Below are positions 15,027 to 29,916 of a DNA stretch of 64,000 nt, piece after piece. How positions within the stretch are numbered: the first letter of the stretch is position 1; each line of letters starts with the position of its first letter. The stretch is taken from NCBI RefSeq assembly GCF_000025545.1, contig NC_013889.1, positions 1,729,501-1,793,500 of the forward strand. Reading direction: 5' to 3'. A model generated the notes under the pieces. It was not told where the DNA came from and searched no databases. It saw only the letters and a list, made by a program, of their open reading frames with translations. Source of the stretch: Thioalkalivibrio sp. K90mix (GTDB lineage Bacteria; Pseudomonadota; Gammaproteobacteria; Ectothiorhodospirales; Ectothiorhodospiraceae). The position numbers were made by a program, and so were the translations under genes.

Positions 15027-16280
15027 ATGCTCGCACTGCAAGCCGGGCTGGGACTGCTCGCTTTCGTGGCCATCGCGTGGCTGCTGAGCGAACACAAGAC
15101 ACGCTTCCCCTGGCGTGAGGTGCTGGCCGGACTGGCGCTCCAGTTCGGGATCGCCGTGCTGCTGTTGAGCGTCCCCGGCGCGCAGCATGCGTTCCTGTGG
15201 CTGAACGAGGTCGTGATCGCCCTGACCGACGCCACCCAGGCCGGCACCTCGTTCGTGTTCGGCTATATCGGCGGGGACGACCCGCCGTTCGCGGTCGACG
15301 AGCCGGAAAACACCTTCATCCTCGCGTTCCAGGCGCTGCCGCTGGTGCTGGTGCTCTCGGCCCTGTCGGCGCTGCTGTTCTACTGGCGCGTGCTGCCGGT
15401 GCTGATCCGCGGGGCCTCGCTGGTGCTGCAGCGGGCGTTCGGTATTGGCGGCGCCCTGGGCGTGGGCACGGCGTCGAACGTGTTCCTCTCCATGGTCGAG
15501 TCGCCGCTGGTGATCCGCCCGTACCTGCGCCAGATGACGCGCAGCGAGCTGTTCGCGCTGATGAGCGTGGGCATGGCGACGCTGGCCGGCACGATGCTGG
15601 TGCTGTACTCGACCATCATCGGCACGGTGCTGGACGACGCGCTGGGCCACCTGATCGTCGCCTCGCTGATCAGCCTGCCGGCCGCGCTGCTGATCGCCAC
15701 CGTGATGATCCCGCCGACCGCGCCCTCCACCGCCGGCGAGCTGCTCCCCGAGACCGAGGGCGCCACCAGCTCCATGGACGCGATCACCCGCGGCACCCTG
15801 CGCGGGCTGGAACTGCTGCTGCAGATCATCGCGCTGCTGATCGTGGTGATCGCCCTGGTCGCGCTGGTCAACGTGATGCTGGGTGCGCTGCCGGAGGTCG
15901 CCGGGGCCGCGCTGAGCCTGGAGCGCATCCTGGGCTGGGTCTTCGCCCCGCTGGCCTGGCTGATGGGCATCCCCTGGGCCGAGGCCACCACCGCCGGCTC
16001 GCTGCTGGGGGTCAAGACCATCCTCAACGAGATGGTCGCCTTCCTGCAGATGGCCGAGCTGGGTGACGACGCGCTGTCCGCGCGCAGCGAACTGATCCTG
16101 ATCTATGCGCTCAGCGGCTTCGCCAACCTGGGCAGCCTCGGCATCCTGATCGGCGGCCTCGGCGCACTGGTGCCGGAACGGCGCAGCGAGATCGTGAGCC
16201 TGGGCATCCGCGCCATCGTCGCCGGCACGCTCGCCACGCTGATGACCGGCGCCGTGGTCGGCATCGTGCATATCGCCTGA
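15027..16280 (+). CDS. Concentrative nucleoside transporter (CNT/NupC family)
   Basis: Cation-coupled nucleoside importer of the inner membrane, 417 aa with about ten hydrophobic segments. Family motifs are TRFPWREVLAGLALQFGIAV near the N-terminus, GTASNVFLSMVESPLVIRPY in the first re-entrant hairpin region, and ALSGFANLGSLGILIGGLG near the C-terminus. The ATG at 15027 follows AAAGGGGACTGC, a fair ribosome-binding site. The gene stands alone, divergent from recC. Nucleoside preference cannot be read from the sequence. Confidence 0.93.
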   Translation: MLALQAGLGLLAFVAIAWLLSEHKTRFPWREVLAGLALQFGIAVLLLSVPGAQHAFLWLNEVVIALTDATQAGTSFVFGYIGGDDPPFAVDEPENTFILAFQALPLVLVLSALSALLFYWRVLPVLIRGASLVLQRAFGIGGALGVGTASNVFLSMVESPLVIRPYLRQMTRSELFALMSVGMATLAGTMLVLYSTIIGTVLDDALGHLIVASLISLPAALLIATVMIPPTAPSTAGELLPETEGATSSMDAITRGTLRGLELLLQIIALLIVVIALVALVNVMLGALPEVAGAALSLERILGWVFAPLAWLMGIPWAEATTAGSLLGVKTILNEMVAFLQMAELGDDALSARSELILIYALSGFANLGSLGILIGGLGALVPERRSEIVSLGIRAIVAGTLATLMTGAVVGIVHIA

Positions 16281-16343
16281 CGCGCGGCGGGGTCTGCCAA
16301 ACCGTTGGCAGCCGGGAGCCGTTCCGGTGTAGGCTTCTGCCTG

Positions 16344-16368
16344 GCGATATGCAAACTGAAATATAACG
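16344..16368. promoter_or_regulatory. Possible ModE-type operator upstream of modABC
   Basis: GCGATAT, ten bases, ATATAACG. The right half matches the CG(T)TATAT half-site known for ModE; the left half matches about five of eight positions. It is about 175 bp before modA in an AT-rich patch, where a promoter for modABC is expected. No modE gene is in the window. Confidence 0.35.
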
Positions 16369-16393
16369 AACCGCATATCCCCAGCTTCACCGT

Positions 16394-16500
16394 CACTGCG
16401 AGGAGCACCACGACGAAGCACAAAAGCAGCGAAGCTGCGTTGAACGGCCGAAGGCCGGCCCGAAGGGCGAGCGCAGCGAGTAATCGCGGACGAAACCACC
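16394..16500 (+). repeat. Dispersed-repeat remnant between the nucleoside transporter and modA
   Basis: The stretch begins CCGTCACTGCGAGGAGCAC, resembles one arm of the nemis/MITE-like repeats seen elsewhere in this window (CGTCATGGCGAGG), and contains a hairpin (GGCCGAAGGCCGGCC). The other arm is not clear. It fills much of the 263-bp gap before modA; no reading frame here looks coding. Confidence 0.4.
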
Positions 16501-16543
16501 CGAGCCAACCACAACCCGCACCCACAGGGAACTATCCCCACCC

Positions 16544-17302
16544 ATGCACCTGCGCGCCCTCCTCCTGACCCTCGTCCTGCTGCTGCCCGGCCTGGCGCAC
16601 GCCTCCGGGCCGCTGACCATCGCCGCCGCCTCGGACCTGCGCTTTGCCCTGGACGAGATCGTGGAGGCCTACCGCGAGGAGTATCCGGACGACCGCGTAC
16701 GCGTGACCTACGGCTCCTCCGGGCGCATGACCACGCAGATCCTCAACGGCGCGCCCTACGACCTCTTCTTCTCCGCCGACATCGCCTACCCGAAGCGGCT
16801 CTACGCGGAGGGGGCCGCCGTCACCGAGCCGTCCGTCTACGCGATCGGCCGCATCGTGCTGTGGAGCAACCGCCTGGATGCCTCCGAGCTGACGCTGGAG
16901 GACCTGACGCGCGACGACATCCGCCGCGTGGCCATCGCCTCGCCCACGCACGCCCCCTACGGCGTGCGCGCGATGGAGGCGCTGAAGGCCGCCGGCGTCT
17001 GGGAGGAGCTGCAGCCCAGGATCGTCAACGGCGACAACATCGCCCAGACCGCGCGCATGGTGCAGGCCGGCGGCGCCGACATCGGCATCATCGCGCTGTC
17101 ACTCGCGGCGTTTCCCGATCTCGCCGAACACCCGCACTACCTGATCGACGACGCGCTGCACGAACCCCTGACCCAGGGCTTCGTGATCACCCGCCGCGGC
17201 GCGGACAAGGACGCGGCGCACCGCTTCGCCGGGTTCATGGGCCGCGACACCGCCCGCGAGATCATGCGCCGCTACGGCTTCGAGATGCCTGGAGATTCGT
17301 AA
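16544..17302 (+). CDS. modA: Molybdate ABC transporter substrate-binding protein ModA
   Basis: Periplasmic molybdate/tungstate binding protein, 252 aa. The signal peptide MHLRALLLTLVLLLPGLAHA ends at an AHA-S cleavage site. Motifs of the family follow: LTIAAASDLRFALDEIV, YGSSGRMTTQILNGAPYDLF, FFSADIAYPKRLY. The stop TAA is 6 nt before the modB start. First gene of modABC. Molybdate supply fits molybdoenzymes of a respiring chemolithotroph, but none is in the window. Confidence 0.95.
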   Translation: MHLRALLLTLVLLLPGLAHASGPLTIAAASDLRFALDEIVEAYREEYPDDRVRVTYGSSGRMTTQILNGAPYDLFFSADIAYPKRLYAEGAAVTEPSVYAIGRIVLWSNRLDASELTLEDLTRDDIRRVAIASPTHAPYGVRAMEALKAAGVWEELQPRIVNGDNIAQTARMVQAGGADIGIIALSLAAFPDLAEHPHYLIDDALHEPLTQGFVITRRGADKDAAHRFAGFMGRDTAREIMRRYGFEMPGDS

Positions 17303-17308
17303 CCGAAT

Positions 17309-18001
17309 ATGTTCGAGCTGAGCCCCACGGACTGGATGGCGATCGAGGTCACCCTCAAGCTCGCGCTCTACACCACGCTGATCCTGCTGGTGATCGCCAC
17401 GCCGATCGCCTGGTGGCTGGCCAACGGGCGCGGCTCCCCCGGCGTGCGCACCGCGGTGCAGGCCCTCGTCGCCCTGCCGCTGGTGCTGCCGCCCACCGTC
17501 CTCGGCTTCTACCTGCTGGTGCTGCTCGGCCCGGCCGGGCCGGTCGGCAGCACGCTGGAGAGCTGGGGCCTGAACCACCTGGCCTTTACCTTTCAGGGCA
17601 TCCTGGTCGGCTCGGTCATCTACTCCCTGCCGTTCGCCGTGCAGCCGCTGCAGCAGGCCTTCGCCAACCTCGGCCGTCGCCCGGTGGAGATCGCCGGCTC
17701 GCTGGGCGCCGGGCGCATCGACCGCTTCGTGACCGTGATCCTGCCGATGACGCGCGGCGGCTTCATCGTCGCCGCCACGCTCGCCTTCGCCCACACCCTC
17801 GGCGAGTTCGGCGTGATCCTGATGCTGGGCGGCGCCATCCCCGGCGAGACCCAGGTGCTGTCCATCCTGATCTACGACCACGCCGAGGCGATGGACTTCG
17901 ACTCCGCCCATCGCCTGTCCTTCGGACTGCTGATCTTCGCCTTCGCCGTGCTGTTCATCGTCTACGCGATCAACCGCCGCTTCGACACGGTGCGCCTGTG
18001 A
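17309..18001 (+). CDS. modB: Molybdate ABC transporter permease ModB
   Basis: Inner-membrane channel subunit, 230 aa, five to six hydrophobic helices. The N-terminus ELSPTDWMAIEVTLKLALY and the motif ALPLVLPPTVLGFYLL are typical. The EAA loop reads EIAGSLGAGRIDRFVTVILP, the contact site for ModC. A GGAG ribosome-binding site sits 14 nt before the ATG. The stop codon overlaps the modC start (GTGA). Confidence 0.95.
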   Translation: MFELSPTDWMAIEVTLKLALYTTLILLVIATPIAWWLANGRGSPGVRTAVQALVALPLVLPPTVLGFYLLVLLGPAGPVGSTLESWGLNHLAFTFQGILVGSVIYSLPFAVQPLQQAFANLGRRPVEIAGSLGAGRIDRFVTVILPMTRGGFIVAATLAFAHTLGEFGVILMLGGAIPGETQVLSILIYDHAEAMDFDSAHRLSFGLLIFAFAVLFIVYAINRRFDTVRL

Positions 18002-19104
18002 CCCGGCCCACAACCGACACTCTGCGCATAAAGGCCCGGCTGGAACGCCCCGGCTTCACGCTGGACGTGGACACCGCCTTCCCGCTGGAGGGCGTCACCG
18101 CCCTGTTCGGCCGCTCCGGCTGCGGCAAGACTACCCTCCTGCGCATCATCGCCGGCCTGGAACACCCGCCCGGCGCCGAGGTGCACTTCGGCGACACCAC
18201 CTGGCAATCCGGCAAGACCTTCGTCCCGCTGCACCGCCGCCGCGTCGGCCTCGTGTTCCAGGAATCCACCCTGCTCCCGCACCTCTCCGTGCGCGGCAAC
18301 CTGCTCTACGGCTACAAGCGCACGCCGGAGCCCCTGCGTCGCCTGCACCTGGACGAGGTCGCCCGCCTGCTCGGCATCGACGACCTGCTGGAGCGCCGCG
18401 CCGACCAGCTCTCCGGCGGCCAGCGCCAGCGCGTCGCCCTCGGCCGCGCCCTGCTCATCAGTCCCGACCTGCTGCTGCTCGACGAGCCCCTGAACGCCCT
18501 GGACACCCAGACCAAGCGCGAGATCATGCCCTTCCTCGCCCGCCTGTCCGACAGGACCGGCATCCCCACCCTCCTGGTCACCCACGCCCCGGAAGAAGTC
18601 GAACGCCTCGCCCACCGCGTCGCCTTCATGCACGACGGCCAGCTCGAACGCCTGGAACCCCTGCGCGACGCCCTCGCCCGCGCCGACTCCCCCCTGTTCC
18701 GCGACGAAGGCGCCGTCTCCGTCCTGCAAGGCGAACTCGGCCCGGCGGACGCCCACGGCCTGCATCCCTTCGGCCCACCCGAGGCCCGCTACCGCGTACC
18801 GTCCACCCCCGGCGCCACCAACGGCGCCGGCCGCCCGGCCCGCCTGCGCATCGACGCCCGCGACGTCTCCATCGCCCTAACCCCGCCCCAGGACGTTTCC
18901 ATCCTCAACATCATCCCCGTCACCATCGAGTCGCTGGACGAGGCGCCTGGGCACCACGGGCCCGCGCGCGTACTCGCGGTGTGTCGGCAGGATGATGGGC
19001 AGACTTTGATGGCGGAGTTGACGAAGCTCTCCACCGAGCGGCTTGGCCTTCGGCAAGGCGCCCGCGCGCATGCGCTCGTCAAATCGGTCGCCTTCCTCGA
19101 CTGA
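17998..19104 (+). CDS. modC: Molybdate ABC transporter ATP-binding protein ModC
   Basis: ATPase of the molybdate importer, 368 aa. I place the start at the GTG at 17998, which overlaps the modB stop (GTGA) and gives MTRPTTDTLRIKARLERPGF. Walker A is FGRSGCGKTT, the Q-loop VGLVFQESTLLPHL, the signature LSGGQRQRVALGRALL, Walker B LLLLDEPLNALD and the switch VTHAPEEV. The C-terminal MOP/TOBE domain (RIDARDVSIALTPPQDVSIL onward) binds oxyanion and tunes activity. All key residues are present. Confidence 0.95.
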   Translation: MTRPTTDTLRIKARLERPGFTLDVDTAFPLEGVTALFGRSGCGKTTLLRIIAGLEHPPGAEVHFGDTTWQSGKTFVPLHRRRVGLVFQESTLLPHLSVRGNLLYGYKRTPEPLRRLHLDEVARLLGIDDLLERRADQLSGGQRQRVALGRALLISPDLLLLDEPLNALDTQTKREIMPFLARLSDRTGIPTLLVTHAPEEVERLAHRVAFMHDGQLERLEPLRDALARADSPLFRDEGAVSVLQGELGPADAHGLHPFGPPEARYRVPSTPGATNGAGRPARLRIDARDVSIALTPPQDVSILNIIPVTIESLDEAPGHHGPARVLAVCRQDDGQTLMAELTKLSTERLGLRQGARAHALVKSVAFLD

Positions 19105-19635
19105 GTTCCCTCGCCTGCGCCGCGAATGGCCCCCCACCATCGAACGATTCGCAAAACCCGCATAGTCCATGACAGAATCCGTATGACCGCCGTCACGAAG
19201 CCGACCTTTCCGCTGTGCACTAACCTCGAACCCCAATCCCAGCGAATCAAAGGCTTAAGACCACATCCAGATTACCCCTTACTGACCATGATAAATAACC
19301 CGGTCCACGAACATCGGGAAGCCACCCGTTCCTTAGCTGCGAACCTCAAAGGTTCCGACGTCTACCATTGGCTCATTGACAACGGGTATTTCCCAGAAAG
19401 CTACGTTCTCCCCCCATGCTATCAAGTCGCGCAGCGGCCAAATACACGGAAGAAATTTATTCCGGTTACAGGGCGCGGAAAGAACTACAACGTCCCTACG
19501 CACCAACTTGTGGGTGTGCACTTCCCAAAGTCCGAGTTTACCGATCGTGACTTTGGTGTCATACACCCACACTTACACAACGATATCGCATACCACATTT
19601 CTCGGAACTGGAAATCCGTTGTCAAGGCTCTCATT

Positions 19636-19641
19636 CCTAGT
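19636..19641. repeat. Target-site duplication CCTAGT, left copy
   Basis: Direct repeat of the CCTAGT at 20730-20735. In the uninterrupted gene it encodes Pro-Ser. The copy also provides the TAG stop of the transposase on the other strand. Confidence 0.93.
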
Positions 19642-20626
19642 TGTCAGGTCTCGCCTGGTCATATACACGTTTTCGAAATAAATCGGGGCGTTCATGCTGC
19701 CAGGCCTTGAGGGTTTCCACCGGCGTCCGATGCCCCAGCGCCTTCTGGCCAATGTGATGGTTGTACAGCCGCTGGTAGTGCCGCAGGGCTTCGTCCAGGT
19801 GCTGACCGGAGTCGAAGTGGCGGGTGCGCAGCAGATCGGCGATGCGCCCGTTGAAGCGTTCGACCATGCCGTTGGTCTGGGGCCGCTTGGGCCGGATCAG
19901 GCGATGCTCGATCCCGTGCTCGGCACACAGCCGGTCGAAGGGGTGCTGCCCCGTCGGCGCGCGCTCCCCGGTCGCGGCAAAGCGGTCCGTGAACTCCTTG
20001 CCGTTGTCGGTGACGAGGTGGGTGATATGGAACGGCGCTTTCTCGAGGAGCTTCTTCAGAAAGCCGCGCGCGGCTTCGGCGCTCTTGGTGCGCCGCACCT
20101 CCAGATAGACCCAGCGGCTGGCCCGGTCGATGGCCACGAACAGGTAGCCACGAGACGTCTGGTCTGCCATCTGCGGCAGGTACTTCACGTCCACATGCAC
20201 AAAGCCCGGCACGTAGTCCTTGAACGGCTTGTGCGCCGGCTCCTCGGGTTCCCCGTCGCGTTCCCGCTGCAGGGCCCGCAGGTCGCCCACGCCGTGCCGG
20301 CGCAGGCAGCGCGCGAGCGCCGCCCGGCTGAGATCCGGGTTCAGGAACTCACGCGCCACGATCAGCAGGTCATCCAGCGACAGCAGGGCCACTTCCCGGA
20401 CCTGGACCACGATCGCCTCCTGCTCCGGCGTCAGGGTCGTGTGCAGCCGCTTGGGGCAATGCGACCGATCTTCCACCTCCCGGCGGTAGCGCCACTTGCG
20501 CACGGTCATGCGCGTAATGCCGTAGCGCCGGGCCAGCTCGGGATCGCTCACGCCGGGCGGTGCCTCCTGCAACTCCCGCCGGATCTGGGGTGTGGTGCGC
20601 GCGTTCGAATGGATCGTGCTCGCCAT
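19637..20626 (-). CDS. IS481-family transposase
   Basis: DDE integrase-type transposase, 329 aa. Residues 1-60 hold a helix-turn-helix (SDPELARRYGITRMTVRKWR). The catalytic core has HVDVKYLPQM (first Asp), LVTDNGKEF (second Asp) and MVERFNGRI (Glu). Intact in appearance. The last codons run past the IS end: the stop TAG (19637-19639) lies in the target duplication, so the stop is supplied by the NCTAGN target. The ATG at 20626 follows GGAGGGATAGC, a good ribosome-binding site. Confidence 0.95.
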   Translation of the reverse strand: MASTIHSNARTTPQIRRELQEAPPGVSDPELARRYGITRMTVRKWRYRREVEDRSHCPKRLHTTLTPEQEAIVVQVREVALLSLDDLLIVAREFLNPDLSRAALARCLRRHGVGDLRALQRERDGEPEEPAHKPFKDYVPGFVHVDVKYLPQMADQTSRGYLFVAIDRASRWVYLEVRRTKSAEAARGFLKKLLEKAPFHITHLVTDNGKEFTDRFAATGERAPTGQHPFDRLCAEHGIEHRLIRPKRPQTNGMVERFNGRIADLLRTRHFDSGQHLDEALRHYQRLYNHHIGQKALGHRTPVETLKAWQHERPDLFRKRVYDQARPDN

Positions 20627-20729
20627 GCTATCCCTCCTGCGTGGGGCGGCCGCACACGATACTCAGCCACTCTCGTGCACGAAACAGGGGTGCCTTCTCG
20701 TGCGGTATAGAATCGTCCGTTACCCAACA
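19642..20729 (-). mobile_element. IS481-family insertion sequence, 1088 bp
   Basis: One transposase gene on the minus strand. The ends are imperfect inverted repeats beginning TGTCAGGTCTCG (left) and TGTTGGGTAACG (right, read inward), 8 of 12 identical. It is flanked by the perfect 6-bp duplication CCTAGT. This fits the NCTAGN target known for IS481. It interrupts the reverse transcriptase gene in antisense orientation. Confidence 0.93.
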
Positions 20730-20735
20730 CCTAGT
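20730..20735. repeat. Target-site duplication CCTAGT, right copy
   Basis: Identical to 19636-19641. Removing the IS together with one copy restores the reading frame ...LIPS-DSIVTSYSF... of the reverse transcriptase. Confidence 0.93.
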
Positions 20736-22022
20736 GACAGCATTGTCACATCCTATAGCTTCCCAGTTCCGATCGATTCGAAGCACCCCGGAAGACTAGG
20801 TCATCTCAGGAGTGGACGGATGATCTACGAGTTCGTTGGGATGGTTGACAAAGACATAGCCTCAATCGCCTATCGCTACAAACACTTGGTTAGAGCCGAT
20901 ATAAAGAATTTTTACCCCGGGATATATACGCACAGTATCGCTTGGGCCTTACATGGGAAAAACAACGTAAGAAAACGAGAGAACTTCCGCAACTACCAAC
21001 TTTTAGGCAACCGCCTGGATCGATTATTCCAGCGGGCGAATGATGGATGCACAAATGGAGTTCCTATAGGCCCGGCAGTGTCAGATATTGTCGCCGAGAT
21101 CATCGCCAGTGCAGTGGATCGAATCCTATCAAAAGGGGTCAAAGAAAGTTCTATCGACTGCGAGATAATTCGATTTAAGGATGATTATAGGATATTAGTT
21201 CAGTCCGAAGAAGATGGCAGGCGCGTGATAAAAGAACTACAGGCATCATTAAAAGAATTTAGCTTAGAGATAAACGAAGCGAAGACGGAAATAAAAACCC
21301 TGCCAGAAGGACTGTTCCGAGAGTGGGTATCTCGCTACCATCTTGTACACCCAAAAAAACGCGCGAAGTACTCTTGGAAGCAGTTTAGGGAGCTCTACTT
21401 GGCGGTTCTCCGCATAGATGAAGACTGCCCAGGGACAGGCGTTATTGACCGCTTCTTAGCAGACATTGTCTCTAAATATGGGGCGCTCAAGGTGACCGTC
21501 GGATCCTTCAATTTGCAAAGAATCATAAGCATGCTACTAATGCTTGCAAATAGGCGTGTAAAAGCCTTCCCCAAGGTGCTCGCAATCATTGAATCCGTTC
21601 TTCGGTCTCCATTCGGATCAGCCCATCAGACCGAGATCGTCGAGCATCTAGAAAGGTACTTACAATCACTTGTACTTGAGGAGGAGAGGAACAAGTACCT
21701 TATCTGCTGGATCAGTTACTTCATAGTCAGCAACGGACTTAAGAAAGACTTATCCATTTCGCCGAAGCTCTCCGACCCGATTACGCGCTCTGTTTATAAT
21801 AACCGCTCGGTCCTCTTCAAGAACGCTACAGAGTTCAAGCTTTTTAAAGGCTGCGTTGCCGCCGGAAAGGAAGTCTCGATGCTCGAACATCTAGAGGTCT
21901 TTTACCCCCCCAAGACTGGCTAGTTGTGTAAACCCACCAGGTTGTTCATCACGGCGTCGGACCTCGATAAGGCATTGCGAGTGGAGGACACCCACTTTCT
22001 GCGGGCTTGCCTGAAAACGAAC

Positions 22023-22042
22023 TCGGCGCCCGAAGGCGCCGA
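22023..22042. terminator. Hairpin downstream of the reverse transcriptase
   Basis: TCGGCGCC, loop CGAA, GGCGCCGA: a perfect 8-bp stem with a tetraloop 100 bp after the reverse transcriptase stop. There is no T run, so it may be a stabilising hairpin or part of a repeat rather than a terminator. Confidence 0.4.
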
Positions 22043-22121
22043 TCGAAGTGGCTGGGAGAGTGCCGGGGCCTAGCCCCAGATGTCCTGAGTGATGCCGGCG
22101 AATGGAGAGAAAAAGAGAAAC

Positions 22122-22145
22122 CGAAGAAGGGGACACCCATCTTTT
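22122..22145. repeat. REP-like palindrome (GAAGGGGACACCCATCTT type)
   Basis: Imperfect palindrome AAGAAGGGGACACCCATCTT. Related copies occur near 21983, 29887, 30768 and 33706, all between genes and on both sides of the island. Confidence 0.6.
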
Positions 22146-22170
22146 TTCGGACCCCCTGACGGGGTCGGAC

Positions 22171-22204
22171 CTCGATAAGCCGCTGAACGCAAAGGCCGGG
22201 TTTC
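22171..22204 (+). repeat. Imperfect 34-bp direct repeat, left copy
   Basis: Begins CTCGATAAGCCGCTGAACGC and matches 29827-29860 at 29 of 34 positions. The two copies bracket higA, the type I restriction operon and the DUF6994-like gene. Confidence 0.6.
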
Positions 22205-22339
22205 GTCGTTCGGGCCTCTAAAGGGGCTTAGACGGGCCATTTTTGAGCGGAAAAGGGCCACCAAGATTTCGGGACGAAGGGGGCAACCATTTTCCTTTCC
22301 GGTTGCGACGACTGCCGTAGGCTACGAGGATTACCACTG

Positions 22340-22657
22340 ATGACCATGCACAACCCTCCGCACCCGGGCGAGTTCATTCGCGAGGTCTATCTGGAACCGT
22401 TTGGACTCAGTGCCCGCCAGCTTGCCAGCAAGCTCGATGTCTCGCCTTCCACCCTGGGGCGCGTCCTGCAGGGACGCAGCGGGGTCAGCCCGGAGATGGC
22501 GCTGCGTCTGTCCAAAACGCTCGGCCGTTCGCCGGAAAGCTGGCTGGCCATGCAGGACCAGCACGATCTCTGGTGCGCACGGAAGAGCGTGAAGCTGGAC
22601 ACCGTGCAGCGGGTGCGGTTCGATGGACCTGGCGACGGCGGGCAACCTGCCGCTTAG
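22340..22657 (+). CDS. higA: HigA-family antitoxin (XRE helix-turn-helix), apparently without toxin
   Basis: 105 aa. The N-terminus NPPHPGEFIREVYLEPFGLS is the HigA signature and the HTH follows (SARQLASKLDVSPSTLGRVL). In HigBA modules the toxin gene lies just upstream; here the 416 bp upstream carry only repeats. It could be an orphan antitoxin or a regulator of the restriction operon that starts 94 bp downstream on the same strand. A GAGG motif lies about 12 nt before the ATG. Confidence 0.85.
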   Translation: MTMHNPPHPGEFIREVYLEPFGLSARQLASKLDVSPSTLGRVLQGRSGVSPEMALRLSKTLGRSPESWLAMQDQHDLWCARKSVKLDTVQRVRFDGPGDGGQPAA

Positions 22658-22751
22658 CACCGCAGGAAGTACGCCAGGGAAGTGGCGCCCACCTTTCTCC
22701 TGACCTGCGCGCGAAGGGATAATGCGGCGTCCAAGGAGAACGGGTGACTGA

Positions 22752-24239
22752 ATGTTCGAGCAAACCTTCCGCAATATCGATGATGTGCTCTGGAAAGAGG
22801 CCGGCTGCGCGACGGAGCTGGACTACACGGAGCAGACGTCGTGGATGCTGTTCCTCAAGTATCTGGATGATCTGGAGTACGAGCGCGCGCAGGAGGCGGA
22901 GCTGGTGGGCAAGTCCTATCAATACATCATCGATGAGCCGTATCGCTGGTCGGCGTGGGCTGCGCCGAAGAAGGCGGATGGTACATTCGACCATGACGAG
23001 GCGCTGACGGGCGCGGATCTGATCGGCTTCGTCAACGACGATCTGTTTCCGTATCTCCAGGGCTTCCGCACGCGCGCGACGGGGCCGGACACCCTCGAGT
23101 ACAAGATCGGGGAGATCTTCAGCGAGATCCGCAACAAGTTCTCCAGCGGCTACAGCCTGCGCGATGCGCTGGAGCTGATCGACGGCCTGAGCTTCCGCTC
23201 GCAGAAGGAGAAGCACGAGCTCTCCCACTTGTACGAGGCGAAGATCCGCAACATGGGCAATGCGGGGCGCAACGGCGGCGAGTACTACACGCCGCGCCCG
23301 TTGATCCGCGCCATGATCCAGGTGGTGAAGCCGCGCATCGGCGAGCGCATCTACGACGCCGCCGCCGGGTCGGCCGGCTTTCTGTGCGAGGCCCACGACT
23401 ACCTGCGCTACGGGCCGGACGGCCAGGGTGATGGGAAGCGCGACGGCAGCCATCTGTCCATCAGCGACCTGAATACCCTCCAGACCCGCACCTTCTACGC
23501 CAAGGAGAAGAAGAGCCTGCCCTATGTGATCGGGATCATGAACCTGATCCTGCACGGCATCGAGGCGCCCAATGTCATTCACACCAACAGCCTTACGGAG
23601 AACCTGAGCGACATCCAGGAGAAGGACCGCTTCGACGTGATCCTCGCCAACCCGCCCTTCGGCGGCAAGGAGCGCAAGGAGGTCCAGCAGAACTTCCCCA
23701 TCAAGACCGGCGAAACGGCCTTCCTGTTCCTGCAGCACTTCATCAAGTACCTGAAGGCCGGTGGCCGCACCGCCGTCGTCATCAAGAACACCTTCCTGTC
23801 CAACAGCGACAATGCCTCGCGTGCGCTGCGCAAGGAACTGCTGCAAAGCTGCAACCTGCACACCATCCTGGACTGCCCCGGCGGCACCTTCCTCGGTGCG
23901 GGTGTGAAGACGGTGGTGCTGTTCTTCGACAAGGGCGCGCCGACCCGGAAGCTCTGGTACTACCAGCTCGACCCCGGCCGCAGCCTGGGCAAGACCAACC
24001 CGCTCAACGATGATGACCTGAAGGACTTTGTCGCCCGCCAGGCCGGCTTCGACGATTCTGACAATTCCTGGACGGTGGACGTCCAGGATATCGACCCGGA
24101 CAGCGTCGATCTGTCGGTGAAGAACCCGAACAAGGCCGAAGCTGAACCCCTGCGCGATCCCGAGGTAATCATCAACGAGATCGAGACGCTGGACCGGGAG
24201 AGCGAAGAGATCCTGGAAGGCATTCGGGGGATGTTATGA
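22752..24239 (+). CDS. hsdM: Type I restriction-modification methyltransferase subunit HsdM
   Basis: N6-adenine methyltransferase, 495 aa. The N-terminal HsdM bundle has LDYTEQTSWMLFLKYLDDLE. The catalytic motif IV is NPPF at residues 300-303 (VILANPPFGGKE), and the SAM-binding region AAAGSAGFLCEAHDY lies around residue 205. The stop overlaps the hsdS ATG (ATGA). First gene of hsdM-hsdS-RhuM/Doc-hsdR. The gene shows the high GC of the flanks, unlike parts of hsdS. Confidence 0.96.
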   Translation: MFEQTFRNIDDVLWKEAGCATELDYTEQTSWMLFLKYLDDLEYERAQEAELVGKSYQYIIDEPYRWSAWAAPKKADGTFDHDEALTGADLIGFVNDDLFPYLQGFRTRATGPDTLEYKIGEIFSEIRNKFSSGYSLRDALELIDGLSFRSQKEKHELSHLYEAKIRNMGNAGRNGGEYYTPRPLIRAMIQVVKPRIGERIYDAAAGSAGFLCEAHDYLRYGPDGQGDGKRDGSHLSISDLNTLQTRTFYAKEKKSLPYVIGIMNLILHGIEAPNVIHTNSLTENLSDIQEKDRFDVILANPPFGGKERKEVQQNFPIKTGETAFLFLQHFIKYLKAGGRTAVVIKNTFLSNSDNASRALRKELLQSCNLHTILDCPGGTFLGAGVKTVVLFFDKGAPTRKLWYYQLDPGRSLGKTNPLNDDDLKDFVARQAGFDDSDNSWTVDVQDIDPDSVDLSVKNPNKAEAEPLRDPEVIINEIETLDRESEEILEGIRGML

Positions 24240-25495
24240 GGGAGGGGTGGAAGACAGCGAAGCTCAGTGAGCTTTGCGATATTCAACTTGGAAAGACACC
24301 CGCTCGCGCTAATTCTTCCTATTGGGATCAAGAGAGGTCCACCGGTAACGTTTGGCTCTCCATTGCGGATCTACTCAAATCTGAAGCCAACAACGTATCC
24401 GACAGCAAGGAGTATCTTTCGGATAAAGGGGCAAAGCTGTGCAAGATCGTCAAGAAGGGAACACTTCTTGTCAGCTTTAAGCTGACATTGGGCCGGGTCG
24501 CATTTGCGGGAAAAGACCTATATACCAATGAAGCGATTGCTGCGTTAACAATTCATGATGAGCAGATCATCAACCGAGATTATTTGTTCTACTTCTTGCA
24601 TTTTTTTGATTGGGTGAAGGCAGCACAGGATGACGTCAAGCTCAAGGGGATGACGTTAAACAAGGCGAAGCTAAAGGAGATCCTGGTGGTTGTCCCACCC
24701 CTCCCCGAGCAAAAGCGCATCGTCGCCATCCTCGATGAAGCCTTCGCGAGCATCGACACCGCGGTCGCCAACACCGAAAAGAACCTCGCCAATGCCCGGG
24801 AGTTGTTTGAGAGTTATTTAAATGCAGTGGTTGACACCGCGTTCCGCAAATCCACTGTCACGGTGTTGTCTGACTTGGCTGAAGAGATCACTGATGGTGA
24901 TCACATGCCTCCGCCCAAGGCACCATCGGGCGTTCCGTTTATAACGATCAAGAACATTGATAAAAGAACGCGAAAGGTTGACTTTGAGAACACCTTTCGT
25001 GTCCCTCGCAGCTACTTTGAGGGACTCAAGCCAAATAAACGCCCAAGAAAAGGCGACGTGTTGTATACCGTTACCGGTTCGTTCGGAATTCCTGTTGTGG
25101 TGGGTCAAAAGACGGAGTTCTGTTTCCAGCGACATATCGGTTTGATCCGGCCAAAATCAGGCACAGACAGTAGCTGGCTCTATTACCTTCTCATGTCTCC
25201 TCAGATTTTTGCGCAGGCGACTGACGGTGCCACCGGAACAGCACAGAAGACGGTTTCATTGAAAGTGCTTCGCAGTTTCAGGGTTCCAACGATTCCTTTG
25301 GATCAGCAAGTGGACAACGTACAGCAATTAGATAACCTCCTTGCTGATGTCGAAGGGCTTGAATCGATCTACAGGCAGCAGCTCCGTAACTTGGGTGAAC
25401 TGAAACAATCCCTCCTGCAAAAAGCCTTCTCCGGCGAACTCACCGCAGGCAAGGCAGCCTCCGATGCCATGCGCCAGGTGGAGGAAATCGCATGA
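24236..25495 (+). CDS. hsdS: Type I restriction-modification specificity subunit HsdS
   Basis: DNA-recognition subunit, 419 aa with two target-recognition domains. TRD1 runs from the start to about residue 150, then the first conserved helix VVPPLPEQKRIVAILDEAFA. TRD2 starts near residue 205 (LSDLAEEITDGDHMPPPKAP) and the C-terminal conserved region ends LGELKQSLLQKAFSGELTAG. The TRDs are clearly AT-richer than the conserved helices, as expected when TRDs are exchanged between systems. It overlaps both neighbours by ATGA. The recognition sequence cannot be predicted by eye. Confidence 0.95.
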   Translation: MREGWKTAKLSELCDIQLGKTPARANSSYWDQERSTGNVWLSIADLLKSEANNVSDSKEYLSDKGAKLCKIVKKGTLLVSFKLTLGRVAFAGKDLYTNEAIAALTIHDEQIINRDYLFYFLHFFDWVKAAQDDVKLKGMTLNKAKLKEILVVVPPLPEQKRIVAILDEAFASIDTAVANTEKNLANARELFESYLNAVVDTAFRKSTVTVLSDLAEEITDGDHMPPPKAPSGVPFITIKNIDKRTRKVDFENTFRVPRSYFEGLKPNKRPRKGDVLYTVTGSFGIPVVVGQKTEFCFQRHIGLIRPKSGTDSSWLYYLLMSPQIFAQATDGATGTAQKTVSLKVLRSFRVPTIPLDQQVDNVQQLDNLLADVEGLESIYRQQLRNLGELKQSLLQKAFSGELTAGKAASDAMRQVEEIA

Positions 25496-26496
25496 GCGCC
25501 GAAACCCAGGCCCCCATCGTGATCTTCGAGGATGCCGACAAGGCGGTCGAAGTTCGGCTGGATGCCGACCGCGAGACCGTCTGGCTGACGCAGGAGCAGA
25601 TGACGGTGATCTTCGATGTGCAGAAGGCGGCGGTATCCAAGCACCTGAAGAACATCTTTCAGGATGGCGAACTGGAACGTGAGGCAACCGTTTCCATTTT
25701 GGAAACCGTTCGAGCCGAGGGAAAGCGCCGGGTCACCCGGCAGATCGAGCACTACAACCTCGACGCGATCATCTCCGTTGGCTACCGGGTGAACTCGCGC
25801 CGCGCCGTCAAGTTTCGCCAGTGGGCCACCCGCGTGTTGCGCGAACACCTGACCCAGGGCTGGACCCTGAACCGCCAGCGCTTCGAGGAAAACGCCCGGG
25901 AGCTGGAGGCGGCCCTGGCGCTGGTACGGAAGGCCGCGCAAAGCCCGGCGCTGGATGCGGGCAGCGGTCGTGGTCTGGTGGATATCGTCAGCCGCTACGC
26001 CCAGACCTTTCTGTGGCTGCAACGCTATGACGAAGGCTTGCTGACCGAACCGCGCGCCCAGACTGGAGGCACGCTGCCCTCCTGGGAACAGGCGCGGGCC
26101 GCGCTGGACGGGCTGAAATCCGACCTCATGGCACGCGGCGAAGCCACCGAGCTGTTCGCCCGCGACCGGGGTGATGGTCTGACCTCGCTGCTGGGCAATC
26201 TCGATCAGAGTGTGTTTGGTGAGCCCGCCTACCCCAGCGTCGAATCCAAGGCGGCGCACCTGCTCTATTTCGTGGTGAAGAACCACCCGTTTTCCGATGG
26301 CAACAAGCGCAGCGCGGCCTTTCTGTTCGTGGACTTCCTCCACCGCAACGGTCGCCTGCTGGGTGAGTCCGGCGAGCCGGTGATCAACGATGTCGGCCTC
26401 GCGGCCTTGACCCTGCTGGTGGCCGAGTCCGACCCTGCGAACAAGGAGACCATGATCCGTTTGATCATGAATATGGTGGCTGGAGACCAGGGATGA
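25492..26496 (+). CDS. RhuM/Doc (Fic-fold) protein inside the type I restriction operon
   Basis: 334 aa with two parts. Residues about 10-125 form a RhuM-type domain (ETVWLTQEQMTVIFDVQKAA, YNLDAIISVGYRVNSRRAVK). Residues about 225-334 form a Doc/Fic domain with HPFSDGNKRSAAF at 265-277, close to the HxFxD(G/A)NKR motif of Doc kinases/AMP transferases, so the catalytic His and the phosphate loop look intact. It overlaps hsdS and hsdR by ATGA on both sides, so it is made with the restriction enzyme. Such genes recur in type I operons; their role (toxin, or guard against loss or inhibition of the system) is not settled. No separate antitoxin gene is seen. Confidence 0.92.
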   Translation: MSAETQAPIVIFEDADKAVEVRLDADRETVWLTQEQMTVIFDVQKAAVSKHLKNIFQDGELEREATVSILETVRAEGKRRVTRQIEHYNLDAIISVGYRVNSRRAVKFRQWATRVLREHLTQGWTLNRQRFEENARELEAALALVRKAAQSPALDAGSGRGLVDIVSRYAQTFLWLQRYDEGLLTEPRAQTGGTLPSWEQARAALDGLKSDLMARGEATELFARDRGDGLTSLLGNLDQSVFGEPAYPSVESKAAHLLYFVVKNHPFSDGNKRSAAFLFVDFLHRNGRLLGESGEPVINDVGLAALTLLVAESDPANKETMIRLIMNMVAGDQG

Positions 26497-28907
26497 ACGA
26501 GGCCGGCCTCAATGAGGCAGACACGCGCGCCGAACTGATCGACCCGGCCTTGAAGGAGGCGGGCTGGGGCGTGGTGGAGGCCAGCCGGGTGCGGCGCGAG
26601 GTGATCACCCTCGGGCGACTGCAGGGTGGCGGCAAGCGTGCCAGGCAGGACATCGCCGACTACGTGCTGACCTATCGCGGCCAGAAGCTGGCGGTGATCG
26701 AGGCCAAGAAGCGCAGCCTGCCGGTGAGCGAGGGGCTGGCCCAGGCTAAACGCTATGCCGAGCGCCTGCAGGCGCGCTTCGCCTACGCCACCAATGGCGA
26801 CGGCATCTACCGGGTGGACATGACGACCGGTGTGGAAGGCGCGGTGGATGCCTGGCCCGCGCCGGATGAGCTGTGGGTGGAGACCTTCGGCGCGAGTGTT
26901 GGCGCGCAGGACACCTGGCGGGAGCGCTTCGGGGCCGTGCCGTTCGAGGACAAGGGCGGCTTCTGGCAGGCGCGCTACTACCAGTACAACGCCATCAATC
27001 AGGCGCTGGAGGCGGTTGCCGCGGGACGGGACCGCATTCTGCTGACCCTGGCCACCGGCACCGGCAAGACGGCCATCGCCTTCCAGATTGCCTGGAAGCT
27101 GTTCCATGCCCGCTGGAGCCTGGCGGCGCGTGCTGCCGGCACGCCGGGGCGGCAGCCGCGCATCCTGTTTCTGGCGGACCGCAACATCCTCGCCAATCAG
27201 GCCTTCAACGACTTTTCCGCCTTTCCCGAGGATGCGCTGGTGCGCATCGATCCGGAGGTGATCCGCAAGAAAGGCCGGGTACCGAAGAACGGCAACGTGT
27301 TCTTCACCATCTTCCAGACCTTCATGACCGGGCGCGATGCCGAGGGCCACTCGGCGCCCAACTTCGGCGACTACCCGCCGGACTTCTTCGATTTCATCAT
27401 CATCGACGAGTGCCACCGGGGCGGCGCCAACGACGAGAGCAACTGGCGCGGCATCCTGGAGTATTTCCAGCCCGCCGTGCAGCTTGGCCTGACCGCCACG
27501 CCCAAGCGCACGCACAACGCCGACACCTACGCCTACTTCGGCGAGCCGGTCTACATCTACTCGCTGAAGGAAGGCATCAACGACGGCTTCCTGACGCCGT
27601 TCAAGGTGCGGCAAATCGCCACCACGCTGGATGACTACGTCTACACGGCGGATGACGAGATCATCGAGGGCGAGGTGGAGCAAGGGCGGCGCTACACCGA
27701 GGAGGACTTCAACCGCGTCATCGAAATCACCGAGCGCGAGCGCTACCGCGTGAAGCTGTTCATGGAGCAGATCGACCCGCGCGAAAAGACGCTGGTGTTC
27801 TGCGCCACTCAGGAACACGCGCTGGCCGTGCGCGACCTGATCAACCAGCTCAAGACCAGCAAAGACCCCCACTACTGCGAGCGCGTCACCGCCAACGACG
27901 GCAAGGAGGGCGAGCGTTTCCTGAAGCAGTTCCAGGACAACGAGAAGACCATCCCGACCATCCTCACCACCTCGCAGAAGCTGTCCACCGGCGTGGATGC
28001 CCGCAACGTGCGCAACATCGTGCTGATGCGGCCGGTGAACAGCATGATCGAGTTCAAGCAGATCATCGGACGCGGCACGCGCCTGTTTGAGGGCAAGGAC
28101 TACTTCACGATCTACGACTTCGTGAAGGCCTACGAGCACTTTAACGATCCGGAGTGGGATGGCGAGCCCTTACCGCCCGAACCCTGCGAGCGATGTGGCA
28201 ACAGCCCTTGTAGTTGCACTACGGAGCCTCCGCAGCCCTGCCCTGTTTGCGGCGAGCGGCCTTGTGTTTGCGAGAAGGAGCCGCCGGACCCCTGCGAGGT
28301 CTGTGGCGAATGGCCCTGCATCTGCGAGAAACGGCGCAAGGTGAAGATCCGCCTGGGCGACGGCAAGGAACGCGCCATCCAGCACATGACCGCTACCAGC
28401 TTCTGGGGGCCGGACGGCAAGCCCATTTCTGCCGCTGAATTCATCCAGCGACTATTCGGGGATCTGCCAGAGCTCTTCCAGGACGAAGATGAGCTTCGCC
28501 GCCTGTGGAGCCGCCCGGATACCCGCAAGAGTCTGCTGGAGGGACTGGAGGAGAAGGGCTACGGCACGCAACAGTTGGCCGAGGTCGGCAAGCTGATCGA
28601 GGCCGAAAACAGCGATCTATACGATGTGCTGGCCTACATCGCCTTCAACATGGCGCCGGTCACCCGGGCCGAACGAGTGGATGCCCACAAGGAGCGCATC
28701 TTCCAGGGACACGACTACAGGCAGCAGGAATTCCTGCGATTCGTGCTCGATCACTATGTCGCCCAGGGCGTGAGCGAACTGGATACGGCGAAGCTCCCCC
28801 AACTGATCGAATTGAAGTACCACAGCCTCGGTGATGCGGTGCACGAGCTAGGGCCGGTGAGCAACATTCGAGAAGTGTTCGTGGACTTTCAGCAGTATTT
28901 GTACTGA
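26493..28907 (+). CDS. hsdR: Type I restriction enzyme endonuclease/translocase subunit HsdR
   Basis: ATP-driven translocase and nuclease, 804 aa. The N-terminal nuclease region has DYVLTYRGQKLAVIEAKKRS (Asp...Glu-x-Lys). Walker A is ATGTGKT at 187-193, the DEAD-type box DECHRGG at about 305-311, and LGLTATPKRT follows. The second helicase lobe has STGVDARNVRNIVLMRPVNS and IGRGTRLFEGKDYFTIYDF. Residues about 561-614 hold three tandem cysteine-rich units, an unusual insert before the C-terminal HsdM-binding region. Last gene of the coupled operon. Confidence 0.95.
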   Translation: MNEAGLNEADTRAELIDPALKEAGWGVVEASRVRREVITLGRLQGGGKRARQDIADYVLTYRGQKLAVIEAKKRSLPVSEGLAQAKRYAERLQARFAYATNGDGIYRVDMTTGVEGAVDAWPAPDELWVETFGASVGAQDTWRERFGAVPFEDKGGFWQARYYQYNAINQALEAVAAGRDRILLTLATGTGKTAIAFQIAWKLFHARWSLAARAAGTPGRQPRILFLADRNILANQAFNDFSAFPEDALVRIDPEVIRKKGRVPKNGNVFFTIFQTFMTGRDAEGHSAPNFGDYPPDFFDFIIIDECHRGGANDESNWRGILEYFQPAVQLGLTATPKRTHNADTYAYFGEPVYIYSLKEGINDGFLTPFKVRQIATTLDDYVYTADDEIIEGEVEQGRRYTEEDFNRVIEITERERYRVKLFMEQIDPREKTLVFCATQEHALAVRDLINQLKTSKDPHYCERVTANDGKEGERFLKQFQDNEKTIPTILTTSQKLSTGVDARNVRNIVLMRPVNSMIEFKQIIGRGTRLFEGKDYFTIYDFVKAYEHFNDPEWDGEPLPPEPCERCGNSPCSCTTEPPQPCPVCGERPCVCEKEPPDPCEVCGEWPCICEKRRKVKIRLGDGKERAIQHMTATSFWGPDGKPISAAEFIQRLFGDLPELFQDEDELRRLWSRPDTRKSLLEGLEEKGYGTQQLAEVGKLIEAENSDLYDVLAYIAFNMAPVTRAERVDAHKERIFQGHDYRQQEFLRFVLDHYVAQGVSELDTAKLPQLIELKYHSLGDAVHELGPVSNIREVFVDFQQYLY
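28173..28334 (+). repeat. Triplicated cysteine-rich 18-residue unit inside hsdR
   Basis: Three consecutive units of the form PPxPCxxCGxxPCxCxxE encode twelve Cys in 54 residues: PCERCGNSPCSC, PCPVCGERPCVC and PCEVCGEWPCIC. The spacing suggests small metal-binding knuckles. Each unit is flanked by the next without spacer, and DNA differs between units. Confidence 0.9.
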
Positions 28908-29094
28908 TGTAAGACCACGAGTATCGCCGTCGAAGAGGTGTGAAAGCCAGAGGTCAACGTGCGGTTCGACGGGCATAGAGAGAACGGGCAACCAGCCGCG
29001 TAGCTCCGGGAAACGCGCGCTAACGGCACGAACACACCCACATTACCTGCGTCTAGCGCGGCAGTCACAGGTGTCTGACCGACCGAGAAGAGCC

Positions 29095-29796
29095 ATGATT
29101 GATACGACAATCAATATGTACAGTGACGCAAATGGGGGCGATCCGGATGTCACCAGCCCCACACTGCGAACCTACCACAAGCTTCTCTGGAGCAAGCCTT
29201 TACCAAGTGGCGACCTGTTCGACTTAAGCATCGATAAGCCTAGTTACTACCTATACCATCGCTCTGAGTTGGGCGAATTTTCATTAGGGAGTGACGCTAT
29301 AACTCACTCCTACAGCAAGCAGAACAAGAAGAAATGGCTGACGACACAATTACCGACGGAGGTGCAGGAGCTTTTCGATCGCGGGTCAACAATTGGTGCA
29401 TACCTGATTTTCCCAAACAGGCGGGTTAACCGGAAGCAAACAATTAATCAGGCTAGAGGAATGCTGCGGCTAATCGATGACCGATTTGACTTAACCTTGG
29501 AGTGCATCCGACGCTTCTACATCGGCGAGCCAAACCCGTTAGAGGATACCCTTAAGCGATATTCTTCGTTTTTTCATTTGTTCGATACATTCAATGGCTA
29601 CATCAACTTCTTCCTTCTCAACGATCTGGTGGATGAAAATGGGGGCGTGAAGTTCTACTTGCCGTTCGACGACTTTAAATCGCCACCAGATTTTAGGAAT
29701 GTCGAGGACTACCTCCTCTACAAGAAGAGAGTTGAGTCGTTCATCGAATCTCGTAACCAACGGATTTCAGACTACTCGGGCCAGATTGATACCTAA
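29095..29796 (+). CDS. DUF6994-like protein at the island edge
   Basis: 233 aa, soluble, no signal peptide. I recall the pattern (SDANGGDPDVTSPTLRTYHK, LDLTLECIRRFY-type helix, YINFFLLNDLVDE) from the uncharacterised DUF6994 family; this is from memory. I prefer the ATG at 29095 over the in-frame GTG at 29071 because the family starts close to it and GAGAAGAG precedes it. GC is low like the reverse transcriptase, unlike hsdM/hsdR. It stands alone 190 bp after hsdR. Its place next to a restriction operon suggests a defence role, which is inference only. Confidence 0.75.
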   Translation: MIDTTINMYSDANGGDPDVTSPTLRTYHKLLWSKPLPSGDLFDLSIDKPSYYLYHRSELGEFSLGSDAITHSYSKQNKKKWLTTQLPTEVQELFDRGSTIGAYLIFPNRRVNRKQTINQARGMLRLIDDRFDLTLECIRRFYIGEPNPLEDTLKRYSSFFHLFDTFNGYINFFLLNDLVDENGGVKFYLPFDDFKSPPDFRNVEDYLLYKKRVESFIESRNQRISDYSGQIDT

Positions 29797-29826
29797 CAAT
29801 TCGCGAAACCAATTCGGGGGGCGCCG

Positions 29827-29860
29827 CTCGACAAGCCACTGAACGTAAAAGCGGGGTTTC
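29827..29860 (+). repeat. Imperfect 34-bp direct repeat, right copy
   Basis: Begins CTCGACAAGCCACTGAACGT; 29 of 34 positions match 22171-22204. Four of the five differences fall on the third base of one reading frame (LDKPLN-A/V-KAGF), which may mean a shared coding ancestry. Confidence 0.6.
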
Positions 29861-29916
29861 TCCTACTTGGATCCATGGTGATCAAGAAGAGGACACCGAG
29901 CTTCTTGATACGCTGC

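What the first reader, a model, noticed from the sequence alone, without database searches (positions are those of the whole stretch)
19288..21923. Defence-type reverse transcriptase, restorable on paper after IS removal
Removing 1088 bp plus one CCTAGT copy joins two open frames into about 513 codons without a mismatch. All three palm motifs are present, with RFKDD instead of YADD, and the N- and C-terminal regions are unlike retrons or group II introns. The gene sits in a defence island at low GC. An intact relative could be an undescribed antiphage reverse transcriptase; the group is not one I can name.
Basis: partly seen in the sequence, partly recalled or inferred. Interest (0 to 1): 0.85.

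Follow-up and report, generated by a model that had tools for sequence, protein, structure and literature searches.

The report
UG14 defence reverse transcriptase, IS-interrupted
A bacterial gene for a catalogued but apparently untested virus-defence enzyme (the UG14 reverse transcriptases) is cut in two by a jumping gene here, while intact copies in other bacteria look like DNA-making enzymes that mostly travel alone, without a partner RNA beside them.

Summary
A reverse transcriptase gene (19288-19641 and 20736-21923) is split by a 1088-bp insertion sequence (19642-20729) flanked by a perfect CCTAGT duplication. The two pieces tile PADLOC's RT_UG14 profile (positions 2-109 and 111-492 of 493; 117 and 577 bits). 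I found 35 related loci in eight phyla, 34 with an unbroken frame. R[FY]KDDY is a UG14 signature (35 of 35 rows). A model of an intact relative matches DRT4/UG15, DRT6, Abi-P2 and AbiK far better than retrons or group II introns. The gene sits beside a type I restriction system; relatives neighbour restriction, Shedu and AbiE genes. In 45 of 48 close pairs of relatives the only shared DNA is the frame plus at most 45 bp upstream and 28 bp downstream; one DRT2 control pair shares 225-339 bp upstream. UG14 therefore most likely needs no flanking ncRNA and works like DRT4/AbiK: template-independent, self-primed DNA synthesis with abortive outcome (inferred). This genome's copy is probably dead.

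The parts
19288..19641 (+). N-terminal piece of the UG14 reverse transcriptase gene (118 codons; fingers region and the loop that carries the priming tyrosine in AbiK/Abi-P2)
   Evidence: PADLOC RT_UG14 117.2 bits, profile 2-109/493; aligns to the N-termini of relatives
19636..19641 (.). target-site duplication CCTAGT, left copy
   Evidence: read directly
19642..20729 (-). insertion sequence, 1088 bp, TGT...ACA ends (IS481-like; family name recalled)
   Evidence: rve/rve_3 integrase core; one full copy and one 72% partial match in the own genome (40 of 102 candidates scored); matches, many partial, in 19 of 47 family genomes, best 96% over full length; ends
19637..20626 (-). transposase ORF, 329 aa
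20730..20735 (.). target-site duplication CCTAGT, right copy
20736..21923 (+). C-terminal piece of the UG14 RT gene (395 codons plus stop): palm with RFKDDY, and the all-helical C-terminal domain
   Evidence: PADLOC RT_UG14 576.7 bits, profile 111-492/493; next family 199.9 bits; 32-67% identity to the 35 relatives L074-L108
22340..22657 (+). small ORF (105 aa, HigA/XRE-like by eye, recalled) between the RT and the restriction genes
   Evidence: no PADLOC match
22752..24239 (+). type I restriction methyltransferase (hsdM)
   Evidence: PADLOC MTase_I 533.6 bits
24236..25495 (+). type I specificity subunit (hsdS)
   Evidence: PADLOC Specificity_I 182.9 bits
25492..26496 (+). PDC-S23 candidate defence protein (RhuM/Fic-like; those names recalled)
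   Evidence: PADLOC PDC-S23 447.3 bits
26493..28907 (+). type I restriction enzyme (hsdR)
   Evidence: PADLOC REase_I 466.1 bits

Best explanation
The locus is a UG14 reverse transcriptase gene of the Class 1-like UG/Abi group that lies with other defence genes and was cut in two by an IS, so that this genome's copy is most likely dead (inferred). Intact UG14 enzymes are single proteins of about 490-540 residues: RT fingers and palm fused to an all-helical C-terminal domain. By analogy with their nearest structural relatives (DRT4, DRT6, Abi-P2, AbiK) they most likely assemble into trimers or hexamers, start DNA synthesis on one of their own residues and extend it without a nucleic-acid template, the helical domain taking the place of the template. 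On phage infection the DNA product would accumulate or be stabilised and stop growth of the infected cell. Shown here: identity, predicted architecture, family signature, defence context, lack of a conserved flanking stretch in most close pairs. Inferred: priming, template independence, oligomer, trigger and abortive outcome.
For: Both pieces are best matched by RT_UG14 and by no other family nearly as well; the 10 of 35 relatives that were tested all have RT_UG14 as best hit, 475-729 bits against at most 257 for any other family. UG14 rows form one side of a branch with support 98 (35 rows of 62). The model of L078 (pLDDT 89.6, pTM 0.91) matches UG15/DRT4 (E 1.4e-21, TM 0.65), DRT6 hexamer (TM 0.68), Abi-P2 and AbiK; group II, retron, DRT2 and DRT9 chains have TM about 0.3. 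45 of 48 pairs share no further DNA on the same strand, one DRT2 pair as positive control. No neighbour cluster covers more than 3 of 36 sets (35 loci plus the window). Class 1 enzymes studied so far make DNA without a nucleic-acid template (PMC13174585, passages); DRT4 is described as single-gene, random ssDNA, tyrosine-primed, triggered by phage ORF55 (PMC13213688 and PMC13314766, passages).
Against: No biochemistry or phage test of any UG14 member was found. No tyrosine in the N-terminal loop is invariant in UG14 (Y33 30 of 34, Y38 31 of 34, Y56 27 of 34; by eye the window has Y, Y and F there), so a priming residue cannot be named; the Tyr of Abi-P2 is itself not invariant (Y in 31, H in 12 of 44 Abi-P2-like rows, if Y65 of the phage protein is the published Y61). 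Three of the 48 pairs do share further DNA: L104/L108 (several kb), L079/L084 (an upstream helicase gene), L082/L083 (207 bp just downstream, a 70-aa ORF, and other stretches). Some lineages carry extra genes (RTasHel in L079 and L084; a gene of 195/197 aa with an RNxxxH motif directly after the RT in L102 and L103), so UG14 need not always act alone. Identity to the DRT4, DRT6 and AbiK structures is only 15-21%.
Confidence: 0.68

Rival explanations
1. UG14 uses a flanking or distant non-coding RNA as template, like Class 2 systems (DRT2, DRT9, DRT10).
For: RT fold is shared; an RNA inside the frame or elsewhere in the genome, or one that diverges too fast for blastn, is not excluded. L082/L083 share 207 bp downstream, L104/L108 several kb, L079/L084 about 2.5 kb upstream, L086/L087 71 bp up and 131 bp down, L102/L103 a 73-nt patch about 80-150 nt upstream.
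Against: 45 of 48 pairs with RT identity of 70% or more share nothing beyond 45 bp upstream and 28 bp downstream; of the 12 pairs at 80% or more it is 11. L097/L100 are 94% identical in DNA over the gene and share nothing else in loci of 21 kb. The DRT2 control pair, of similar divergence, shows its upstream stretch. No Rfam match in window 16000-30000. The fold matches Class 1 enzymes, not DRT2/DRT9.
Confidence: 0.08
2. UG14 is not an antiphage enzyme but a house-keeping or repair polymerase.
For: No phage test known; a group II-like RT (G2L4) acts in repair (start of abstract in the listing).
Against: Patchy distribution: in 47 genomes of the family only the window's own pieces scored as UG14, the best match in another genome being a DRT6 at 114 bits; no other hit in 369 class genomes at E 1e-60. 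GC below that of its locus in 34 of 35 relatives. Neighbours are restriction and other defence genes in the window and in relatives, while a control set around purA from 17 of the same genomes had no restriction enzymes among its matches.
Confidence: 0.1
3. The C-terminal piece is still expressed from an internal start and does something by itself.
For: An in-frame ATG at 20820 (MIYEFVGM) precedes all palm motifs; the frame is open and departs from the UG14-invariant columns at only 1 of 42 (S to G).
Against: It lacks the fingers and the loop in which AbiK and Abi-P2 carry the priming tyrosine; an IS lies between it and the native promoter; recent insertion explains the clean frame equally well.
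Confidence: 0.05

Closest known systems
UG14 reverse transcriptases (PADLOC RT_UG14, PDLC03751)
   Same: Both pieces, and the ten relatives tested of 35, are best matched by this profile.
   Different: The window's copy is split by an IS. The family is a sequence group; I found no experiment on it.
DRT4 (UG15) and DRT6 (UG12; the UG numbers partly recalled)
   Same: Nearest folds in the PDB (9l9s, 9vdo, 9wy8); described as single-gene; Class 1-like.
   Different: About 18-21% identity; their profiles score at most 200 bits; the one DRT6 row in the tree lies on a separate branch and has RYVDDY instead of RFKDDY; product and trigger of UG14 unknown.
Abi-P2 and AbiK (protein-primed, untemplated polymerases)
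   Same: RT plus helical domain; fold match; UG14 and Abi-P2 rows share a branch of support 97 in the tree (unrooted).
   Different: RYRDD in 43 of 44 Abi-P2-like rows against R[FY]KDDY in 35 of 35 UG14 rows; no known priming tyrosine.
Retron and group II intron reverse transcriptases
   Same: Common RT palm; RVT_1 match of 48.7 bits.
   Different: TM about 0.3, no maturase domain in Pfam, far below their profile cut-offs.

Membership tests
UG14 (PADLOC RT_UG14) | Best and full-length match to the RT_UG14 profile | tested here: met
   Profile 2-109 plus 111-492 of 493; 117 and 577 bits; next best 33 and 200 bits
UG14 (PADLOC RT_UG14) | Groups with other UG14 rows in a tree with Abi-P2, DRT6 and viral Class 1-like rows | tested here: met
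   C piece inside a 35-row branch, support 98; L086 left out of the tree
UG14 (PADLOC RT_UG14) | One uninterrupted enzyme of about 500 aa | tested here: not met
   Split by a 1088-bp IS in the window; met in 34 of 35 relatives. So: a disrupted member
Class 1 UG/Abi (AbiK/Abi-P2/DRT4-like) | RT fused to an alpha-helical (HEAT-like) C-terminal domain | tested here: met
   Predicted model of intact relative L078: residues after about 313 nearly all helical; Foldseek to DRT4, DRT6, Abi-P2, AbiK
Class 1 UG/Abi (AbiK/Abi-P2/DRT4-like) | No cis-encoded template RNA | tested here: inconclusive
   No flanking conservation in 45 of 48 pairs, with one DRT2 pair as control; three cyanobacterial pairs share more, and a fast-diverging RNA would be missed
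Class 1 UG/Abi (AbiK/Abi-P2/DRT4-like) | Protein-primed, template-independent DNA synthesis; trimer or hexamer | not testable with these tools
   Needs biochemistry; no invariant loop tyrosine found
DRT4 (UG15) | Match to the Drt4 profile above its curated score | tested here: not met
   NF041749 156.6 bits against a cut-off of 450
Retron RT | Retron RT profile match and msr/msd RNA | tested here: not met
   retron_St85 33 bits against 235; no Rfam match near the gene
Group II intron RT | group_II_RT_mat above cut-off, maturase domain | tested here: not met
   49.4 bits against 300; no maturase domain in Pfam
IS481-like insertion sequence | DDE integrase core, TGT...ACA ends, short target duplication | tested here: met
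   rve, rve_3; TGT/ACA ends, 15 of 30 end bases matching, 6-bp duplication; family name and its marks recalled

The most novel reading that the evidence does not exclude
UG14 is a stand-alone antiviral DNA polymerase family, spread across eight phyla mostly as a bare gene, that self-primes and makes a DNA product of its own kind without any nucleic-acid template. Its product could be biased or patterned by the protein rather than random, as in DRT3b; the lysine next to the catalytic aspartates (R[FY]KDDY, 35 of 35) would be the first residue to test for such a role.
Probability: 0.25. Interest if true: 0.65.

Novelty: new member of a known kind. Interest (0 to 1): 0.42.

Why it matters
UG14 is one of the catalogued reverse transcriptase groups for which I found no function. 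The set of intact relatives, the sharp borders of the transferred unit and the DRT4-like fold turn it into a directly testable candidate: one gene, probably no RNA, one active-site mutant. For the window itself the finding shows a probable loss of a defence gene by an IS in a genome that keeps an intact Abi-P2 and a type I restriction system.

Tried and rejected
Retron, group II intron and known DRT subtypes: rejected on profile scores and fold. Flanking ncRNA: not found in most close pairs; Rfam empty near the gene in the window, and only two tRNAs in four relatives. Conserved partner gene: none general among what was examined; RTasHel identified in 2 loci (4 of 144 neighbours matched that profile at 1e-10, the other two not identified), the RNxxxH gene in 2 of 34 loci, DUF559 in 2 of the 9 downstream genes tested. 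An AlphaFold model of the RNxxxH protein was poor (pLDDT 46) and was not used. Priming tyrosine by conservation: inconclusive. Searches that found no UG14: single-sequence scans of genome contigs and viral contigs; alignment scan of viral contigs (38 loci, none above 115 bits or matched over more than about three quarters of the right piece; the 23 put in the tree fall outside UG14); plasmids and phages (only distant matches, all under 60% identity); E. coli genomes and plasmids with an enterobacterial UG14 gene. Rows L109-L153 of that scan were set aside as other RTs because E-values jump there from 7e-57 or better to 1e-37 or worse. A first attempt at a DRT2 control in whole genomes gave 2 of 397, neither over the cut-off. 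The defence-neighbour comparison is qualitative: the tool lists families, not proteins (54 families near UG14, 25 shown; 25 around purA, among them mad3, mad6, mad8, SspA and DndA); the UG14 set left out six genes already examined (two RTasHel, two aconitase-like, two IIG) and lies nearer to its gene than the control set does.
Full report
WHAT IS THERE. The window carries, on the + strand, two reading-frame pieces of one reverse transcriptase: 19288-19641 and 20736-21923, separated by a 1088-bp insertion sequence (19642-20729) with the 6-bp duplication CCTAGT on either side. The insertion codes for a 329-aa transposase on the - strand with an integrase core (rve, rve_3). The own genome shows one full copy and one 72% partial match (40 of 102 candidates scored), so a mis-assembly between repeats is unlikely; 19 of 47 genomes of the family hold matches, many partial, one at 96% over the full length with other flanks. 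The IS481 name is recalled. By length alone the pieces add up to 513 codons; they were searched apart and never joined.

WHICH FAMILY. Against PADLOC, the right piece scores 576.7 bits with RT_UG14 (profile 111-492 of 493) and the left piece 117.2 bits (profile 2-109); the next families are Drt6 (199.9 and 32.9), AbiP2 (175.3 for the right piece) and Drt4. NCBIfam gives only sub-threshold matches (Drt4 156.6 against 450; group II 49.4 against 300; retron 33 against 235).

RELATIVES. UG14 is rare around the window: in 47 genomes of its family only the window's own pieces scored as UG14; the best match in another genome (114 bits) is a DRT6, and weaker ones were not examined one by one. No other hit came from 369 class genomes at E 1e-60, and in 398 phylum genomes at 1e-40 the further hits, one of them in the own genome, were Abi-P2 enzymes; these sets overlap. 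34 of the 35 have an uninterrupted frame of 489-537 aa; L086 is broken at 362 aa; the 489-aa frame of L076 lacks a usual start codon at the homologous place. Ten of these 35 were run against PADLOC; all ten have RT_UG14 on top (475-729 bits, next at most 257). By record title the hosts are Pseudomonadota, Planctomycetota, Cyanobacteriota, Nitrospirota, Bacteroidota, Balneolota, Thermodesulfobacteriota and Spirochaetota; many are metagenome bins. In a tree of 62 rows (34 relatives, the right piece, 27 other RTs) the UG14 rows are one side of a branch with support 98, and the window's piece sits with Methylophaga, Salinicola, Chitinibacter and two planctomycete rows (quick method, unrooted).

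SIGNATURE. RFKDD is a family mark, not an oddity of this gene: R[FY]KDDY in 35 of 35 UG14 rows (RF 34, RY 1), against RYRDD in 43 and RYVDD in 1 of 44 Abi-P2-like rows (44 kept of 49 by BLAST score), and no K in the 22 viral and own loci, of the 42 looked at, whose motif the pattern could read (overlapping sets). Of 42 columns invariant in the 34 relatives, the window's right piece departs at one (S to G before IYTHS); a few of these columns were fixed by the scan pattern itself. So there is almost no decay apart from the insertion.

STRUCTURE. AlphaFold2 on the intact relative L078 with 34 other rows gives pLDDT 89.6, pTM 0.91: fingers and palm, then a nearly all-helical C-terminal part. Foldseek against the PDB ranks UG15/DRT4 first (E 1.4e-21, TM 0.65 by query), then DRT6 hexamer (TM 0.68), Abi-P2 (0.58-0.64), AbiK (0.58-0.59), AbiA (0.44-0.48); the group II, retron, DGR, DRT2 and DRT9 chains among the 50 rows shown stay at about 0.3. 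A profile search of PDB sequences shows no UG14 structure; the best are DRT4 entries at 146 bits.

FLANKING DNA. For 48 pairs of intact loci with RT identity of 70% or more, blastn of the whole loci (up to about 21 kb, same strand, E 1e-5) shows what else is shared. In 47 of 48 the match that covers the gene ends within 45 bp upstream and 28 bp downstream, and in 45 of 48 nothing else is shared; among the 12 pairs at 80% identity or more it is 11. L097/L100 share 1554 bp at 94% and nothing else. The three exceptions are pairs of cyanobacteria: L104/L108, with the same neighbours; L079/L084, which also share an upstream UvrD-DEDDh gene matched by PADLOC's RTasHel; and L082/L083, which share 207 bp starting 22 bp after the stop (a 70-aa ORF) and further stretches. 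Outside this set, L086/L087 share 71 and 131 bp, and L102/L103 (60% RT identity) a 73-nt patch upstream. Limits: the pairs are not independent, some loci end soon after the gene, and sequence that diverges faster than the gene would be missed. The same test on one pair of DRT2 loci (86% protein and 80% DNA identity, otherwise different surroundings) finds shared DNA from 339 bp (225 bp by the longer annotated start) upstream of the start to just past the stop; that the DRT2 RNA lies upstream is recalled. In L102 and L103 a conserved 195/197-aa gene with an RNxxxH motif follows the RT without a gap (weak HEPN match, below cut-off, in L102 only). So the core is most likely one gene; accessories are lineage-specific.

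DEFENCE CONTEXT. In the window the RT is followed by type I restriction genes hsdM, hsdS, hsdR and a PDC-S23 candidate. RT genes are lower in GC than their locus in 34 of 35 relatives (equal in L092) and in the window. Among 114 neighbours of UG14 (34 loci) PADLOC finds type II and III methylases, type II and IIG enzymes, SduA, DpdF, AbiE, ShosA and others (54 families at E 1e-30, 25 shown); L101 and L106 have IIG enzymes nearby. 114 proteins, drawn from 182, around purA in 17 of the same genomes give 25 families, mostly PD-T4-6 with mad3, mad6, mad8, PDC-S49, SspA and DndA, no restriction enzymes. This contrast is qualitative.

MECHANISM. Class 1 enzymes studied so far synthesise DNA without a nucleic-acid template, some of them primed by their own tyrosine (PMC13174585, passages; PMC9508834, abstract and passages: AbiK Tyr44, Abi-P2 Tyr61 on the loop between helices 2 and 3; oligomers needed for activity). 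DRT4 is reported as a single gene making random ssDNA that becomes toxic when a phage protein protects it, and DRT6 as related (PMC13213688 and PMC13314766, passages; the primary paper is not held). UG14 shares fold, the mostly single-gene layout and the lack of a conserved flank, so the same kind of action is the most likely. In UG14 the loop tyrosines Y33, Y38 and Y56 are frequent but not invariant (30, 31 and 27 of 34); by eye Y56 is F in the window. The class 3 enzyme DRT1 primes on a serine (PMC13275509, abstract, one section and passages), so the residue type should not be assumed.

KNOWN OR NEW. UG14 as a group is known (PADLOC). In the held library 'UG14' with 'reverse transcriptase' gives 3 papers, all on plants; 'UG-14' (5 of 165 listed) and two wider searches with 'ug14' (8 of 120 and 40 of 226 listed) show none on this enzyme in the rows listed; a text search inside PMC8934634, PMC13174585 and PMC13314766 finds no 'UG14'. 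The main UG/Abi survey is not held, so I cannot say that nothing is in print.

Noticed in passing
own genome C1:2612311-2613276 (L005:1180-2676): The same genome keeps an intact Abi-P2 reverse transcriptase of 498 aa (PADLOC AbiP2 630.9 bits).
   Followed up: partly
own genome C1:1529985-1530605 (L001): A third RT (401-aa open stretch with YTRLVDD, retron-like by eye) beside an ORF that looks like ribonucleotide reductase small subunit (both names recalled).
   Followed up: no
21951-21971 and 22159-22179: A near-perfect 21-bp direct repeat about 208 bp apart just downstream of the RT; its core GTCGGACCTCGATAAG has only these two exact matches in the own genome.
   Followed up: partly
L102:11180-11764 and L103:11180-11770: Two enterobacterial UG14 genes are directly followed by a conserved gene with an RNxxxH (HEPN-type, recalled) motif, a possible toxic RNase partner; 42% identity between the two.
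   Followed up: partly
L079:7152-9611 and L084:7071-9527: Two cyanobacterial UG14 genes have an RTasHel gene (UvrD helicase with a DEDDh exonuclease part) upstream.
   Followed up: partly
29071-29796: Low-GC ORF (241 aa) at the far end of the restriction genes, no PADLOC match.
   Followed up: no
L007 (genome of the same genus): A DRT6 of 587 aa in another species of the genus (504 bits).
   Followed up: no
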